Below, piece by piece: positions 31,482 through 61,918 of a stretch of DNA of 64,000 nucleotides. The notes under the pieces were generated by a model. It did no database searches and was not told the DNA's origin. It saw only the letters and a program-made list of their open reading frames with translations. The stretch's first letter is position 1. The number at the start of each line of letters is the position of its first letter. The translations under genes were made by a program, and so were the position numbers. Where the stretch lies: contig CP166130.1 in assembly GCA_041228335.1 (NCBI GenBank), positions 1,512,638 through 1,576,637 on the forward strand. Reading direction: 5' to 3'. Origin of the DNA: Alphaproteobacteria bacterium LSUCC0684 (GTDB taxonomy: Bacteria; Pseudomonadota; Alphaproteobacteria; Puniceispirillales; UBA1172).

Positions 31482-31523
31482 GAGGATACTCCTTTTCTCC
31501 GGTTGAGCCTCCATGAAGGGATG

Positions 31524-31538
31524 GGAGCGTTTCGCTCC
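31524..31538 (-). promoter_or_regulatory. Small hairpin in the rpsB leader
   Basis: GGAGCG-TTT-CGCTCC (forward strand) forms a six-base-pair stem about 45 bases before the rpsB start, in the expected 5' leader. Ribosomal protein leaders often bind their own product, but no known motif is recognised here. Confidence 0.5.
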
Positions 31539-31604
31539 ACCGGAAGGTGCCTTGCTACTCGCCTATCGGAATTTGCCGACAGCACCGTCCTTCATGTGTG
31601 AATT

Positions 31605-56303: not shown

Positions 56304-57302
56304 ATGATGGATCTGCCGAGTTATAAAGATGTCGCCGCGGCGCGGGACCGCATCAAAGGGGACGCCGTGGTCACGCCGCTCATCTCCTCACCCCGGGCCG
56401 ATGCCCGTCTGGGGGGCATGCTGCTGATCAAGGCCGAACCCCTGCAACGCACCGGATCCTTCAAGTTCCGCGGCGCCGCCAATTCGGTTGCCATGCTGGA
56501 TGCGTCAACCCGCACGGTCGTGGCCTGGTCATCGGGAAACCACGCCCAGGCAGTGGCGGCGGCGGCAACGGCACGCGGGCTCAGATCCATCATCGTCATG
56601 CCGGAAGATGCCCCGGAAACCAAAAAGGCCGGAACGGCCGAACTTGGCGGTGACGTCGTGACCTATGACCGTTACACCGAAAGCCGTGAAGATATCGGCC
56701 AGGCGCTGGCGCGTGAGCATGACGCGGCCATCATTCCACCTTATGATTTTGCGCCCGTCATCGCAGGTCAGGGAACAATCGGTATCGAGATCGCCGAACA
56801 GATTGATGCCCGCGGCATTTCCGCGGACCAGCTCATCTGCTGCACCGGCGGCGGCGGGCTGCTTTCAGGGCTTTCGCTCGGCCTTCATGAGCATCTCCCT
56901 GATCTTGAGATCATCGCCGCCGAACCGGAAGGGTTCGACGACTTCAGAAGATCCATCGAGGCCGGTGAACGCCTTGCCAATATCCCCGGGCCGAAAACGA
57001 TCTGCGATGCCATTGTCACGCCAACCCCGGGCGAGTTGACCTTCGCCATCAACCGCCAGCATGTCAGCCATGGCGTTGCCGTCAGCGACGATGAAGTGCT
57101 GGCCGCGATGGCTTTTGCCTGGTCGGAATACAAACTGGTGATCGAGCCCGGCGGCGCGGTTGCTCTTGCGGCGGCGCTTTCCGGCAAGGTCGAGATCAGG
57201 GGCAAGACAACGGTTATCGTTGCCTCCGGCGGCAATGTCGACAGGGATATTTTCAAGCGCGCGCTGGAAATGCCCGAGGGCCGTGCCTTCAAGCCCCGGT
57301 GA
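56304..57302 (+). CDS. Threonine/serine dehydratase-fold PLP enzyme without ACT domain
   Basis: A 332-residue fold-type II PLP enzyme. The Schiff-base Lys is in RTGSFKFRGAANS near residue 53, SSGNHAQAVAAAATARGLRS follows near 76, and the phosphate loop is CCTGGGGLLSG near 183. The 330-residue length without an ACT domain matches serine racemase, threo-3-hydroxyaspartate ammonia-lyase and related dehydratases; I cannot choose between them. It is a paralogue of the ACT-containing enzyme at 40820. Its 5' region has a palindrome and a duplicated ribosome site; its stop directly abuts the convergent queF stop. Confidence 0.82.
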   Translation: MMDLPSYKDVAAARDRIKGDAVVTPLISSPRADARLGGMLLIKAEPLQRTGSFKFRGAANSVAMLDASTRTVVAWSSGNHAQAVAAAATARGLRSIIVMPEDAPETKKAGTAELGGDVVTYDRYTESREDIGQALAREHDAAIIPPYDFAPVIAGQGTIGIEIAEQIDARGISADQLICCTGGGGLLSGLSLGLHEHLPDLEIIAAEPEGFDDFRRSIEAGERLANIPGPKTICDAIVTPTPGELTFAINRQHVSHGVAVSDDEVLAAMAFAWSEYKLVIEPGGAVALAAALSGKVEIRGKTTVIVASGGNVDRDIFKRALEMPEGRAFKPR

Positions 57303-57821: not shown

Positions 57822-59081
57822 CTAGACCGGGCCACCACAAGGCGAGGCCAGCACCACCACCAGATCCGCAAGGTTGGTGCCGGTGGGCGGACAGCGGACC
57901 AGCCCGCCCATCGCTTCAAGACAGGGGTGGGAATCATGGGCTTCAAGCGCGGCACGGGCGGCATCGGCATGGCCCAGCATCTCGCTGGTCACGCAACCGC
58001 CGGCGGCATCGGTGGGCCCGTCCCGGCCATCGGTTCCTGCGGCAAGAAGCACCCATTCGCCGCCAGAATTGGCCTCCGCCATGGCCGCAAGAAAGGCAAG
58101 GGCAAGCTCCTGCGAGCGCCCGCCAAGGCCATGTCTGGCGGGCAGGCGAACAACCGTCTCTCCCCCGGCAACTCCCGCCAGCGGCTGCGTTGCCTCCCTG
58201 ATGAGTTCGGCCAGCTGCCTGCCCATGGCTGAAGCCTCACCTTCAAGCGGCGGCAGCGTCACCGCGGCCGGGCCAAGCGAGGCCAGGGCCGCCTCAACGC
58301 AGATGCTGTTGCTGGCCAGGATGGAGGTTTCGATCTTATCAAGCCGCTTGTCTCCTTGCATGAGCGGCATTTCCGCATCCCCGGCCCGGAGACGCGCCAG
58401 CGCCTCCCCTACCCAGCTTTCGTTGAGGAGGCCGGATGCCTCAAGATACCCCAGGGTGACGTCGAATGGCGTTGTTTCGGCGGCAAATGGCCCGCTTGCG
58501 ATCGAGATCAGGGCATCACCCGGCACATCGGAAAGCGCCCATTGCGTGATACGCGCCGGTGCCGCAAGCGCCGCCAGACGCCCACCCTTGACGCGTGAGA
58601 ACAGGCGGCGGACGGCGTTCATCGCATGGATATCAAGACCGCTTCCGAGCAGGGCCTGGTTGAGCCTGATCTTGTGATCCAGGGTCAGGCCAGGCATGGG
58701 CAGGGCCATCAGCGCCGAGCCGCCACCGCTCAACAATACGAGAAGATGATCATCCTCCCCAAGTCCGGAAAGCCGCGCCGAGATCGCCGCCGCCGCATCG
58801 AGGCTGCCCTGATCAGGCACGGGATGGCCGCCTCTATAGAGCTCAAACCCGGTGACCTGCCGCGCGTTTTCCCTGTTGGTGACCAGCATTCCCGGCGCGT
58901 TGATGCCTTGGTTCCGGCACGCCTCGGCCATGGCAACCGCGGCCTTTCCAATCCCGAGAACAAAGGTGGGGGCAGATTCAAGATCCCTGATGGCCGTGGC
59001 TATGGCGCGGGCAGGTGAGGCAGCAGCAAGGGCGGCGGCAAATGCAGTTTCGGCCCGGTGCTTCAATTCTGCTATGGTCAT
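57822..59081 (-). CDS. Glycerate kinase, GckA/MOFRL family
   Basis: Phosphorylates glycerate, usually to 2-phosphoglycerate in this family; 419 residues. The N-terminal DUF4147 domain has FVLGIGKAAVAMAEAC near residue 36, GGHPVPDQGSLDAAA near 83, VLLSGGGSALMALP near 114 and GDALISIASGPFAAETTPF; the C-terminal MOFRL domain has GGETVVRLPARHGLGGRSQELALAFL and AGTDGRDGPTDAAGG. Its start overlaps the stop of the reductase gene by four bases, so product of one feeds the other. Confidence 0.88.
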   Translation of the reverse strand: MTIAELKHRAETAFAAALAAASPARAIATAIRDLESAPTFVLGIGKAAVAMAEACRNQGINAPGMLVTNRENARQVTGFELYRGGHPVPDQGSLDAAAAISARLSGLGEDDHLLVLLSGGGSALMALPMPGLTLDHKIRLNQALLGSGLDIHAMNAVRRLFSRVKGGRLAALAAPARITQWALSDVPGDALISIASGPFAAETTPFDVTLGYLEASGLLNESWVGEALARLRAGDAEMPLMQGDKRLDKIETSILASNSICVEAALASLGPAAVTLPPLEGEASAMGRQLAELIREATQPLAGVAGGETVVRLPARHGLGGRSQELALAFLAAMAEANSGGEWVLLAAGTDGRDGPTDAAGGCVTSEMLGHADAARAALEAHDSHPCLEAMGGLVRCPPTGTNLADLVVVLASPCGGPV

Positions 59082-60043
59082 GTGACGGGATCAGGCACGT
59101 CCCGGCCAGCAAAAAAAGCTTCAAGATTGCGGACAACCTTCATCCCCATGGCGTTTCGTGTCTCCAGCGTCGCCGAACCCAGATGCGGCAGCAGAACGGT
59201 ATTCGGGGCCGCCAGCAGGCGCGGATTGATCACCGGTTCACCCTGAAAGACATCCAGTCCGGCGCCGCCGATGCGGCCAGACAAGAGCGCCTCAGCCAGC
59301 GCCTCCTCATCCACGACATCACCCCGGGCGGTGTTGATGACCACGGCATCGGGTTTCATCGCTGACATGGCCTCAGCATTCAGGATATGACGTGTTTCCT
59401 CCCCGCCGGGGCAATGCAGGCTGATGATATCGGCGCGGGCAGCGACATCGCTGACCGTGGCCAGTTGTTCGGCCTCAAACGGGCCGACATCATCGAGGCG
59501 GGAACGGTTGTAGAACACCACCTTCATGCCGAAGCCGAGGGCCGCGCGGCGGGCGGTGGCCCGGCCTATCCGCCCCATGCCGATAATGCCGAGCGTCTTG
59601 CCGGTCATCTCCCGGCCAAGCAGATGCGTCGGCCGCCAGCCTGCCCATTCACCGCTTCGGAGTTCACGCTCCCCTTCACCGGCGCGGCGGCAGGTCATGA
59701 GCATGAGCGTGAGGGCGATATCGGCGGTGGCATCGGTCAGCACCCCGGGGGTGTTCGTCACCACGATGCCGTGGCGTGCTGCCGCTGCTGTATCAATGTG
59801 GTTTACGCCAACGCCGAAATTGGCAATGATCCGGCAGTTGCCGGCGGCGGCGTCAAGGACGCTGGCATCGAGCCGGTCCGTCACCGTGCAGGCGATCCCG
59901 TCATGCGCCTTCATGGCGGTGATCAGGGCTTCTGGTGCGAGTGGTCTGTCTTCTGGATCAACGGTCACGTCAAAAGCCGCACGGAGCGCATTTTCGGATT
60001 CTTCGGGCCAGTGGCGGGTGAGCAGAATGCGTGGCTTGGACAT
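59078..60043 (-). CDS. D-isomer 2-hydroxyacid dehydrogenase (glyoxylate/hydroxypyruvate reductase-like)
   Basis: NAD(P)H-dependent reductase of the D-2-hydroxyacid family, 321 residues. The Rossmann loop GIIGMGRIGRATARRAALGFG is near residue 150 (in parts), the catalytic Arg in INTARGDVVDE near 237, and the His in LLPHLGSATLETRNAMG near 284. Linkage to glycerate kinase, with overlapping ends, points to hydroxypyruvate or glyoxylate as substrate, but the family is broad. The ribosome site AGGAG is well placed. It follows the lyase-like gene by 30 bases. Confidence 0.85.
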   Translation of the reverse strand: MSKPRILLTRHWPEESENALRAAFDVTVDPEDRPLAPEALITAMKAHDGIACTVTDRLDASVLDAAAGNCRIIANFGVGVNHIDTAAAARHGIVVTNTPGVLTDATADIALTLMLMTCRRAGEGERELRSGEWAGWRPTHLLGREMTGKTLGIIGMGRIGRATARRAALGFGMKVVFYNRSRLDDVGPFEAEQLATVSDVAARADIISLHCPGGEETRHILNAEAMSAMKPDAVVINTARGDVVDEEALAEALLSGRIGGAGLDVFQGEPVINPRLLAAPNTVLLPHLGSATLETRNAMGMKVVRNLEAFFAGRDVPDPVT

Positions 60044-60073
60044 GGGCGGTCTCCTTTTTTTGCGGCGACGCGA

Positions 60074-61024
60074 TCAGCGCGTCTTGATCCGGTCATGGAT
60101 GGCGAGCACGGACCGGGCCATCCTCTCATTGGCGGCGTCGATCATCCGGCCTTCATAGGCGGCAGCCCCCTTGCCTTCGGCGGCGGCCAGATCAAGTGCC
60201 GCAAGAATACCTCTGGCGCGGGTAACTTCATCTTCGCTCGGGGAAAACACGGCATTGGCCAGCGGTATCTGCGCCGGATGAATGGCCCATTTGCCCGCCA
60301 TCCCGAGGCTCGATGCCCGGCGGGCGGCGGCGTCATACCCGGCCGGATCACCGAAATCACCAAAGGCGCTGTCCATGGGAACAAGCCCGTTGGCCCGGCA
60401 AGCCGCCACAATACGCGACAGGATGGCATGGAACTGATCCCCCGGATAATCGGGGTTGAGTCCGCCGATATCGACGGTTCGTGCCTGAATGCTGGCGGCA
60501 AAATCACCGGCGCCGAAATGCAGGGCTTCGAGCCTTGGCTTGCCGATATCACGGTTATATCTTGCGATCGCTTCAAGATTGGCGGCGCCGGCGGCTGTTT
60601 CGATCAGCCCTTCGAGGGCGGGCGGGGCAAACCCCTTCGCGGTCGCGATCTGGGTGATGAGGCAATCGGCGGCATAAAGATCCTCCGGCCCGCCGACCTT
60701 GGGCAGGATGACGGTATCGATCCTGTCTCCGGCGGCTTCCAGCACATCGACAAGATCACGATACGTCCAGGAAGTATCAAGGCCGTTCACCCGAAGCGAG
60801 ATTGTCTTGCCGGTGCCGGACCAGTCAATTTCCCTGAGGGCCGTGACCACCAAGAGGCGCGCGGCCGCCTTCTCGCCTGCTGAAACGGCATCTTCAAGAT
60901 CGAGGAAAACAGCATCGGCATCGGTGGTCGCGGCCTTGGTCATCATCTTCATGGATGAGGCCGGAACCGCCAGCAGACAGCGACGCAGACGAGGTGATGG
61001 ATCGGGGGTCAGACGATGGCTCAT
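60074..61024 (-). CDS. HpcH/HpaI-CitE family lyase, malyl-CoA lyase-like
   Basis: A 316-residue TIM-barrel enzyme of the citrate-lyase beta/malyl-CoA lyase family. RRCLLAVPASSMKMMTKAA near residue 14, DAVFLDLEDAVSAGEKAAAR near 37 (metal-binding Glu/Asp), ILPKVGGPEDLYAAD near 100, LIETAAGAANLEAIA near 140 and LHFGAGDFAASI near 170 are typical; WAIHPAQIPLANAVFSPSEDE near 250 matches the malyl/beta-methylmalyl-CoA lyases. The expected reaction is cleavage to glyoxylate and an acyl-CoA; the exact thioester is unproven. It leads the lyase-reductase-kinase operon. Confidence 0.82.
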   Translation of the reverse strand: MSHRLTPDPSPRLRRCLLAVPASSMKMMTKAATTDADAVFLDLEDAVSAGEKAAARLLVVTALREIDWSGTGKTISLRVNGLDTSWTYRDLVDVLEAAGDRIDTVILPKVGGPEDLYAADCLITQIATAKGFAPPALEGLIETAAGAANLEAIARYNRDIGKPRLEALHFGAGDFAASIQARTVDIGGLNPDYPGDQFHAILSRIVAACRANGLVPMDSAFGDFGDPAGYDAAARRASSLGMAGKWAIHPAQIPLANAVFSPSEDEVTRARGILAALDLAAAEGKGAAAYEGRMIDAANERMARSVLAIHDRIKTR

Positions 61025-61117: not shown

Positions 61118-61918
61118 ATGACCATGATTACAACAGAACAGATTACAAACTATCAGCACGACGGGGCGGTCCACCTGCCCGGCCTTTTCAAGGACTGGGT
61201 GGATGTCATCCGCGACGGGATTGAGATGAATATGGCCGAACCGGGGGAATATGCCGCGGAAAACACCAAGGCAGGCGACAGCGGCAGATTTTTCGATGAT
61301 TACTGCAACTGGCAGCGAATCCCCGCCCTTGAAGAGATCATGCTCCGGTCTCCGGCAGCAAAGGCGGCGGCCGAACTCATGCGTTCAGAGACGGCGCAGA
61401 TCTTCCATGATCATGTGCTTGTCAAGGAGCCGGGCACCTCAAAGCCGACGCCATGGCACCAGGATGCGCCCTATTATTTCGTCGAAGGTGAGCAGAATCT
61501 GAGTTTCTGGATCCCGGTTGATCCGGTGAAAGAGGCCACGTTGCGGATGATCGCCGGCTCCCACCGCTGGGAGAAGATGGTCCTGCCCGTACGCTGGCTG
61601 AACGAGGATGCCTTCTACCCCGATGACGACGAATACCTGCCGGTGCCGGACCCGGACCGCGAGCCGGAAGCCTATCGCGTGCTGGAATGGGAGCTTGAGC
61701 CGGGGGATGCGGTGGCGTTTCATTTCAAATGTGTCCATGGCGCGCGGGGCAACATGAACGCCTCCCGGCGGCGGGCCTTGTCGCTCAGGTTTCTGGGGGA
61801 TGATGCCCGTTACGTCACCCGCCCCGGACGCACCTCCCCGCCTTTCCCCGGCCATGGCATGACCGATGGCGAGAAACTCCGCGAAGACTGGTTCCCCATC
61901 GCTTACCGGGCGGCCTGA
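61118..61918 (+). CDS. Phytanoyl-CoA dioxygenase (PhyH) family protein
   Basis: Fe(II)/2-oxoglutarate oxygenase of the PhyH family, 266 residues. The iron ligands are PWHQDAPYYF near residue 112 (His and Asp) and CVHGARGNMN near 208 (His); the 2-oxoglutarate-binding Arg is in SRRRALSLRF a few residues later. GSHRWEKM is a family landmark. Substrates range from phytanoyl-CoA to small osmolytes and natural products; none is predicted. It diverges from the malyl-CoA lyase-like gene and may share regulation with it, but this is inference. Confidence 0.85.
   Translation: MTMITTEQITNYQHDGAVHLPGLFKDWVDVIRDGIEMNMAEPGEYAAENTKAGDSGRFFDDYCNWQRIPALEEIMLRSPAAKAAAELMRSETAQIFHDHVLVKEPGTSKPTPWHQDAPYYFVEGEQNLSFWIPVDPVKEATLRMIAGSHRWEKMVLPVRWLNEDAFYPDDDEYLPVPDPDREPEAYRVLEWELEPGDAVAFHFKCVHGARGNMNASRRRALSLRFLGDDARYVTRPGRTSPPFPGHGMTDGEKLREDWFPIAYRAA

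What the first reader, a model, noticed from the sequence alone, without database searches (positions are those of the whole stretch)
57822..61024. Operon of malyl-CoA lyase-like, hydroxypyruvate/glyoxylate reductase and glycerate kinase
Three adjacent coupled genes encode activities that together occur in the serine cycle: thioester cleavage to glyoxylate, reduction of hydroxypyruvate to glycerate, and phosphorylation to 2-phosphoglycerate. This suggests C1 or C2 (glyoxylate) assimilation in this organism. Malate thiokinase, serine-glyoxylate aminotransferase and PEP carboxylase are not in the window.
Basis: partly seen in the sequence, partly recalled or inferred. Interest (0 to 1): 0.5.

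Follow-up and report, generated by a model that had tools for sequence, protein, structure and literature searches.

The report
Cut-down serine-pathway operon, remodelled lyase
A marine bacterium carries a three-gene operon that resembles part of the serine cycle, but its genome appears to lack the enzymes that would close the cycle, and the lead enzyme has a changed active site, so it probably runs as an open route for small carbon compounds.

Summary
Three coupled minus-strand genes encode a malyl-CoA-lyase-type lyase, a glyoxylate/hydroxypyruvate-reductase-type dehydrogenase and a MOFRL glycerate 2-kinase. The genome is a single-contig, 2.70-Mb SAR116 alphaproteobacterium, and no complete serine cycle was found in it. 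PEP carboxylase was found in 0 of 12 family genomes. The only malate-thiokinase-type protein over cut-off is succinyl-CoA ligase. Ccr, glyoxylate carboligase and XoxF-type dehydrogenases have no member over cut-off. Malate synthase G, isocitrate lyase, two serine-glyoxylate-aminotransferase-like proteins, formate-THF ligase in an oxalate cluster and formate dehydrogenase are present. Best reading: an open serine-type route, hydroxypyruvate to glycerate to 2-phosphoglycerate, with a lyase not fed by malate thiokinase. In two sister genera a glycine-betaine-type (MTTB) methyltransferase lies upstream, which supports a C1/C2 role. The lyase keeps the catalytic residues, but three pocket residues are changed (Ala167Gly, Gly222Ser, Pro223Ala) in all nine family genomes that carry it, so its true substrate is open. 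This is a new variant of a known kind.

The parts
60074..61024 (-). HpcH/HpaI (CitE-like) acyl-CoA lyase, malyl-CoA-lyase clade, with Gly173/Ser219/Ala220 in place of the usual Ala/Gly/Pro (numbered from Met at 61024)
   Evidence: start at 61024 by alignment with relatives; longer ORF to 61066
59078..60043 (-). D-2-hydroxyacid dehydrogenase of the glyoxylate/hydroxypyruvate reductase type
57822..59081 (-). DUF4147/MOFRL glycerate 2-kinase; start overlaps the dehydrogenase stop by 4 nt
60051..60055 (-). AGGAG, Shine-Dalgarno-like, before the dehydrogenase start in the 30-nt gap
   Evidence: sequence read; position counted by hand

Best explanation
The operon is a cut-down, open serine-type module for C2 (glyoxylate) and C1 units. 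Serine made from glycine plus a methylene-THF unit is transaminated with glyoxylate to hydroxypyruvate. The middle gene reduces hydroxypyruvate to D-glycerate, and the last gene phosphorylates it to 2-phosphoglycerate, which enters gluconeogenesis. The lyase interconverts acetyl-CoA (or another short acyl-CoA) and glyoxylate (or a slightly larger 2-oxoacid) with a malyl-CoA-type ester. It is not fed by malate thiokinase and does not close a cycle. Likely inputs are glycine betaine or other methylated compounds and oxalate-derived C1/C2 units. Shown: gene identities by homology, operon structure, which pathway genes were found or not found over cut-off in the single-contig genome, conservation in the family, conserved catalytic residues, changed pocket residues. 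Inferred: reaction directions, substrates, inputs and expression.
For: In the single-contig genome no PEP carboxylase was found, no malate thiokinase over cut-off (the model passes two methylotroph MtkA controls at 735 and 719 bits, while a third, from Methylolobus, reaches 593 of 604), and no Ccr and no Gcl over cut-off. It has malate synthase G (1162 bits, cut-off 989), an isocitrate-lyase-family protein (PF00463), two proteins whose best solved relative is a serine-glyoxylate aminotransferase (E 2.9e-103 and 6.7e-126), formate-THF ligase next to oxc and frc, formate dehydrogenase and PEP carboxykinase. The lyase branch lies beside a short-loop malyl-CoA lyase clade in which 4 of 7 members adjoin mtkAB. 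Lyase and glycerate kinase also lie close together in serine-cycle loci of Methylocystis/Methylosinus and of a Rhodobacteraceae MAG (L059, L062, L063, L074). An MTTB-family methyltransferase (best solved relative of the G128 one: glycine betaine methyltransferase, 2.3e-52) ends 92 nt upstream of the lyase in G128, and one lies near the operon in G125.
Against: Six of nine lyase-bearing family genomes lack the reductase in the operon. In the window's own genome a PhyH-type oxygenase stands where sister genera have the MTTB gene, and whether the genome has MTTB elsewhere was not searched. Neither aminotransferase reaches the cut-off of the closest NCBIfam model (BhcA 451 and 590 of 650). I found no enzyme that makes or uses a malyl-CoA-type ester (malate thiokinase was the only one sought), so the lyase's place in the scheme is weak. 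Pocket changes suggest that its substrate may not be malyl-CoA.
Confidence: 0.5

Rival explanations
1. The lyase has shifted to another acid: it cleaves citramalyl-CoA or a similar ester to acetyl-CoA and a 2-oxoacid larger than glyoxylate, and the operon serves organic-acid catabolism.
For: Position 167 is Gly instead of Ala, and 222-223 is Ser-Ala instead of Gly-Pro, in all family rows (14 of 101 aligned lyases carry this set, 70 of 101 the usual Ala-Gly-Pro). Passages of PMC3832036 name Ala167 as 100% conserved in both malyl-CoA lyase clusters, and say that a conserved proline and tryptophan crowd the methyl of pyruvate. It is the only PF03328 protein in the genome. The family branch is long (0.68 changes per column).
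Against: The tryptophan and the catalytic residues are kept. No itaconate or mesaconate genes are among the window neighbours scanned. Overall similarity is to malyl-CoA lyases of the same type (46-47% identity) and not to citramalyl-CoA lyases (27-32%).
Confidence: 0.27
2. A complete serine cycle operates, with SucCD acting as malate-CoA ligase and PEP carboxykinase replacing PEP carboxylase.
For: SucCD and ATP-type PEP carboxykinase are present; lyase, reductase, kinase, aminotransferase-like proteins and formate-THF ligase are present.
Against: SucC fits the succinate model better and fails the malate-CoA ligase cut-off. PEP carboxylase in 0 of 12 genomes. The carboxykinase normally runs the other way (general knowledge). 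Other members of the order keep mtkAB directly beside their own lyase (L011, L012, L014).
Confidence: 0.07
3. The lyase belongs to an ethylmalonyl-CoA pathway and cleaves beta-methylmalyl-CoA; reductase and kinase dispose of glyoxylate.
For: R. sphaeroides malyl-CoA lyase works in that pathway (PMC3832036, passages read).
Against: Ccr over cut-off in 0 of 12 family genomes, best own hit 78 of 379 bits; isocitrate lyase and malate synthase G provide the glyoxylate shunt.
Confidence: 0.03
4. The genes are neighbours by history only: glycerate kinase and reductase serve glycerate catabolism, and the lyase is a promiscuous left-over of a lost serine cycle.
For: The region is syntenic through housekeeping genes in the family; three of twelve family genomes have no lyase match, among them a single-contig one.
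Against: Tight coupling (2-nt gap lyase to kinase in G132 and G134; 4-nt overlap here) and conserved catalytic residues in nine genomes (the row of G125 is cut short).
Confidence: 0.13

Closest known systems
Serine cycle of methylotrophs (Methylorubrum, Methylocystis)
   Same: Malyl-CoA lyase homologue, hydroxypyruvate-reductase type enzyme, MOFRL glycerate 2-kinase, serine-glyoxylate-aminotransferase-like proteins, formate-THF ligase; lyase close to the kinase in L059, L062, L063
   Different: No malate thiokinase over cut-off, no PEP carboxylase, no methanol dehydrogenase over cut-off; the reductase is only 34% identical (251 aligned residues) to the Methylocystis enzyme
Malyl-CoA/beta-methylmalyl-CoA lyase, R. 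sphaeroides type (4L9Y) and Methylorubrum type (5UGR)
   Same: Fold, length, catalytic and Mg-binding residues, lid Asp
   Different: Ala167Gly, Gly222Ser, Pro223Ala and a 10-residue loop where 4L9Y has 19 and 5UGR 25 residues
MOFRL/DUF4147 glycerate 2-kinase (2b8n, Methylocystis gck)
   Same: Both Pfam domains over threshold
   Different: 36% identical to the Methylocystis kinase; below NCBIfam equivalog cut-offs, as is the Methylocystis enzyme
Glycine betaine demethylation with C1-THF and serine-cycle proteins in marine roseobacters (PMC12478193, passages)
   Same: MTTB-type methyltransferase beside the operon in sister genera; the paper names SAR116 among clades with mtgC homologues
   Different: MTTB not searched in the window's own genome; no expression data
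Glycerate pathway (Gcl - tartronate semialdehyde reductase - glycerate kinase), as proposed for Oxalobacter formigenes (PMC8092247, passages)
   Same: Oxalate cluster and glycerate kinase present
   Different: Gcl over cut-off in 0 of 12 family genomes

Membership tests
Serine cycle | malate thiokinase mtkAB | tested here: not met
   one PF08442 protein over cut-off; SucC model 551 bits, malate-CoA ligase model 476 of 604; a second match in the genome is below cut-off (24 of 29.5 bits, in a 701-aa frame, not studied)
Serine cycle | PEP carboxylase | tested here: not met
   PF00311 in 0 of 12 genomes; rings in 7 of 14 controls
Serine cycle | malyl-CoA lyase homologue | tested here: met
   as a homologue only
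Serine cycle | serine-glyoxylate aminotransferase | tested here: inconclusive
   two candidates with best solved relative a serine-glyoxylate aminotransferase; BhcA model 451 and 590 of 650 bits
Serine cycle | hydroxypyruvate reductase and glycerate 2-kinase | tested here: met
   as homologues; substrates not tested
Serine cycle | formate-THF ligase | tested here: met
   own genome 881 bits, 11 of 12 family genomes; equivalog cut-off passed
Serine cycle | methanol dehydrogenase (XoxF/MxaF type) | tested here: inconclusive
   0 of 12 over cut-off, best own 36 of 480 bits, but 0 of 14 controls pass the cut-off
Serine cycle | serine hydroxymethyltransferase glyA; methylamine dehydrogenase | not tested
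Malyl-CoA lyase | Asp42, Glu44, Asp45, Arg76, Glu141, Asp168, Asp299 (4L9Y numbering) | tested here: met
   all kept in the window protein; roles from PMC3832036 passages
Malyl-CoA lyase | Ala167, said to be 100% conserved in both malyl-CoA lyase clusters | tested here: not met
   Gly in all family rows; Gly also in 13 other rows without Ser-Ala
Malyl-CoA lyase | proline and tryptophan at the 2-oxoacid site | tested here: inconclusive
   Trp kept, Pro replaced by Ala; that these are the paper's residues is my alignment, the passages read give no R. sphaeroides number for them
Malyl-CoA lyase | activity on malyl-CoA | not testable with these tools
   needs enzyme assay
Ethylmalonyl-CoA pathway | crotonyl-CoA carboxylase/reductase | tested here: not met
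   0 of 12 over cut-off; 1 of 14 controls passes
Glycerate pathway | glyoxylate carboligase | tested here: not met
   0 of 12 over cut-off; best own 358 of 711 bits; 1 of 14 controls passes
MOFRL glycerate 2-kinase | DUF4147 and MOFRL domains | tested here: met
   209 and 92 bits, cut-offs 23 and 28
Citramalyl-CoA lyase (CLYBL/RipC/8khl) | closest sequence relationship to these | tested here: not met
   27-32% identity against 46-47% to malyl-CoA lyases 4l9y, 4l9z, 5ugr

The most novel reading that the evidence does not exclude
The lyase is not a glyoxylate enzyme. Its opened pocket (Gly, Ser-Ala) takes a larger 2-oxoacid such as hydroxypyruvate. It then cleaves a hydroxymethyl-malyl-CoA-type ester (itatartaryl-CoA, the CoA ester of an oxidised itaconate) to acetyl-CoA and hydroxypyruvate, and the next two genes carry hydroxypyruvate straight to glycerate and 2-phosphoglycerate. 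The operon would then be a complete three-step catabolic line for an undescribed substrate.
Probability: 0.06. Interest if true: 0.7.

Novelty: new variant of a known kind. Interest (0 to 1): 0.35.

Why it matters
SAR116 bacteria are abundant in the surface ocean (general knowledge). An open serine-type route would show how a small genome can use C1 and C2 units from osmolytes or oxalate without the full methylotrophic cycle. It is also a warning: lyase, reductase and kinase side by side do not prove a serine cycle. The changed pocket, seen in each of the nine family genomes that have the lyase, gives a concrete enzyme to assay.

Tried and rejected
Serine cycle, ethylmalonyl-CoA pathway and Gcl-type glycerate pathway were rejected on gene content.

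Two independent origins of the Gly/Ser-Ala set: the same three residues occur in two Rhizobiaceae-group MAG lyases (L060, L068) with a long loop, placed elsewhere in the tree. A tree that holds them with the SAR116 rows is not rejected (AU p 0.085; p 0.43 when the three columns and the loop are left out and L004 is dropped). I therefore claim no convergence. In the genomes of both MAGs the one match to an MtkA query is SucC-type. But three Oceanospirillaceae/gamma MAGs with the usual Ala-Gly-Pro set also have one match each, at 50% identity; two of them (L150, L151) are SucC-type by model, the third (L152) was not scanned. The residue set is thus not tied to loss of malate thiokinase.

Oxalyl-CoA reductase: an ORF at L044:2245-3318 was considered because a PanE-type enzyme does this in Methylobacterium (recalled). 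It scores only 28 bits to ketopantoate reductase models and misses the Pfam cut-off, so it is not claimed.

Beta-hydroxyaspartate cycle: the neighbouring PALP gene scores 254 of 550 for BhcB and 328 of 452 for hydroxyaspartate ammonia-lyase. Not established.

G135, a single-contig family genome without a lyase match: 80 kb guessed to hold the syntenic region gave no hit to any of 12 window proteins. The kinase there remains unlocated.

Literature searches (open-access library): 'SAR116' with 'malyl-CoA lyase' 0 papers; with 'oxalate' 3, listing only; with 'serine cycle' 4, one read in passages; 'citramalyl-CoA lyase' with 'hydroxypyruvate' 6, listing only. In the passages read of PMC9875883, a mixture of 2-hydroxyparaconate and itatartarate was not used as a carbon source, and the word hydroxypyruvate does not occur in its main text. 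PMC3832036, PMC12478193 and PMC8092247 were also seen in passages only.

Promoter and terminator scans gave counts near those of shuffles (3 and 3 found, 1.4 and 3.4 expected) and were not used.
Full report
What is there. On the minus strand, 57822-61024 holds three coupled genes: an HpcH/HpaI (CitE-like) lyase, a D-2-hydroxyacid dehydrogenase and a DUF4147/MOFRL kinase. Lyase stop and dehydrogenase start are 30 nt apart with an AGGAG between them; dehydrogenase and kinase overlap by 4 nt. Best solved relatives are malyl-CoA lyases 5ugr and 4l9y, glyoxylate reductases and a putative glycerate kinase, 2b8n. A predicted model of the lyase (mean pLDDT 94.2) matches 4l9y at TM 0.92 and 46% identity; human CLYBL and CitE-type enzymes come lower.

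Organism. The window lies in a single-contig genome of 2,704,644 bases, rated 100% complete. Two genomes of the same order carry contigs whose lengths equal those of named records: G129:C9 and L045 (71,032 bases, SAR116 cluster bacterium MED595), G076:C87 and L080 (3,377 bases, SAR116 cluster). NCBI gives the order as Puniceispirillales. The family of the window's genome has 12 genomes in the collection, own included.

Spread. In the order, 101 of 136 genomes have some match, most of them distant (about 28-36% identity). A close lyase (57-75% identity, E below 1e-110) is in 9 of the 12 family genomes, own included. It is not found in G126, G127 and G135; G135 is a single contig. Lyase is followed by the dehydrogenase in own, G125 and G128, and directly by the kinase in the six genomes of genus g4 that have it. 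In G132 and G134 the gap between lyase and kinase is 2 nt. The kinase is seen in 8 of 9; the contig of G125 ends inside the dehydrogenase. The surrounding genes (iron-type binding protein, QueF, PALP, DapA, SmpB) keep much of their order in the family genomes whose contigs reach that far, so the operon is inherited with the chromosome.

Serine cycle test. PF03328: one protein only. PF08442: one protein over cut-off, SucC (551 bits to the SucC model, 476 of 604 to the malate-CoA ligase model), followed by SucD; a second match of 24 bits misses the cut-off of 29.5. The malate-CoA ligase model passes MtkA of Methylocystis (735) and of a Hyphomicrobium MAG (719), but the MtkA beside the lyase of Methylolobus narrowly misses it (593 of 604), though that protein ranks malate-CoA ligase first. 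PF00311 (PEP carboxylase): 0 of 12. TIGR01751 (Ccr): 0 of 12 over cut-off. TIGR01504 (Gcl): 0 of 12 over cut-off. TIGR03075 (PQQ methanol/ethanol dehydrogenase): 0 of 12 over cut-off, but no control passes either. Present: malate synthase G, an isocitrate-lyase-family protein, formate-THF ligase, PEP carboxykinase and formate dehydrogenase alpha, and two aminotransferases whose best solved relative is a serine-glyoxylate aminotransferase. So five kinds of serine-cycle part are there, as homologues, and two that close the cycle were not found. GlyA and methylamine dehydrogenase were not searched.

Sources of C1 and C2. Formate-THF ligase lies in a minus-strand cluster with oxalyl-CoA decarboxylase (1013 bits, cut-off 739), formyl-CoA transferase (693 bits, cut-off 504), an Fmt-like formyltransferase, a tripartite transporter and a GntR/FCD regulator; SucCD, formate dehydrogenase and PEP carboxykinase follow. 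In G128 an MTTB-family methyltransferase ends 92 nt before the lyase, and in G125 one lies between the transporter gene and the operon, with a helicase-like ORF in between. Both miss the cut-off of the pyrrolysine-type trimethylamine model (298 and 284 of 525); the best solved relative of the G128 protein is glycine betaine methyltransferase 9yce. Passages of PMC12478193 report mtgC homologues in SAR116 and raised serine-cycle proteins during growth on glycine betaine in Ruegeria pomeroyi. In the window's own genome the place is taken by a PhyH-type oxygenase at 61118-61918 that resembles MysH; whether the genome has MTTB elsewhere is unknown.

The lyase. The residues that the passages of PMC3832036 assign to catalysis and metal binding are kept: Asp42, Glu44, Asp45, Arg76, Glu141, Asp168, Asp299 in 4L9Y numbering (the L004 row, broken by a run of N, begins after the first three). 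The same paper calls Ala167 100% conserved in both malyl-CoA lyase clusters, and says a proline and a tryptophan limit pyruvate. Here 167 is Gly, the proline position (223 by my alignment) is Ala, and 222 is Ser; Trp249 is kept. Of 101 aligned lyases, left after dropping the CLYBL-like rows, 70 have Ala-Gly-Pro, 14 Gly-Ser-Ala, 12 Gly-Gly-Pro and 5 other sets. The 14 are 12 rows of the family (nine genomes, three counted again through their named contigs) and two Rhizobiaceae-group MAG lyases. In the tree the family forms one group (100) on a branch of 0.68, next to a short-loop clade of seven (support for the two together 87, 96 and 91 in three builds), four of which adjoin mtkAB. These are quick trees with many open forks. 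The single-origin test of the Gly-Ser-Ala set is not decisive. An effect on substrate choice is inferred from published contacts, not measured; I had no coordinates to measure pocket volumes.

How it most likely works. Hydroxypyruvate, made from serine and glyoxylate by a serine-glyoxylate aminotransferase, is reduced to glycerate and phosphorylated to 2-phosphoglycerate. The lyase handles acetyl-CoA and glyoxylate, or a near relative, at the same node. Without malate thiokinase and PEP carboxylase this is an open line, not a cycle. The part of the lyase is the weak point: I found no enzyme that makes or consumes a malyl-CoA ester, and sought only malate thiokinase.

Comparison and novelty. 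The parts are known; the combination is an incomplete, conserved version with a changed lyase, in a group for which the open-access library gave no paper holding both 'SAR116' and 'malyl-CoA lyase'. I rate it a new variant of a known kind and of moderate interest.

Noticed in passing
L043:13147-18847 (genome 2325146-2330846): Oxalate cluster: oxalyl-CoA decarboxylase, formyl-CoA transferase, an Fmt-like formyltransferase (131 bits, fmt cut-off 202) and formate-THF ligase in a row. A TPP enzyme of like score lies about 2.5-2.6 kb from the ligase (or a piece of it) in 8 of 12 family genomes, own included (those of the relatives not scanned by family). The formyltransferase may move formyl units to or from THF.
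   Followed up: partly
L163:16202-17758, L165:3044-4546: MTTB-family (glycine-betaine-type) methyltransferase upstream of the lyase operon in sister genera g3 and g2; in the window a PhyH gene stands there.
   Followed up: partly
L061, L066, L086, L088: In several other alphaproteobacteria the usual-type lyase stands before accA (PF03255 tested in L066; the others by look of the sequence), in three of them after a XerD-like ORF (by look of the sequence), without mtkAB in the fetched flanks.
   Followed up: no
L048, L049, L083: Lyase preceded by a tartronate-semialdehyde/3-hydroxyisobutyrate-type reductase (218 of 341 bits for L049; Pfam domains for L048 and L083), and in L083 also by a hydroxypyruvate-reductase-like gene; another link of this lyase to glycerate-forming reductases.
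   Followed up: no
window 61118-61918 +: Divergent PhyH-family Fe/2-oxoglutarate oxygenase beside the operon; best solved relative MysH (1e-26); not found next to the lyase in the other loci searched.
   Followed up: partly
window 56304-57302 +: PALP enzyme below the cut-offs of hydroxyaspartate ammonia-lyase and BhcB (328 of 452, 254 of 550), next to QueF or the kinase gene in several family genomes.
   Followed up: no
window 31485-31600 -: Rfam rpsB sRNA family (RF01815, 49 bits), the only Rfam match in the window at gathering threshold.
   Followed up: no
L079, L083: Record titles name Bifidobacterium breve and Bordetella parapertussis, but these are MAG contigs whose lyases group with proteobacterial serine-cycle lyases; the Bifidobacterium label at least looks wrong.
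   Followed up: no
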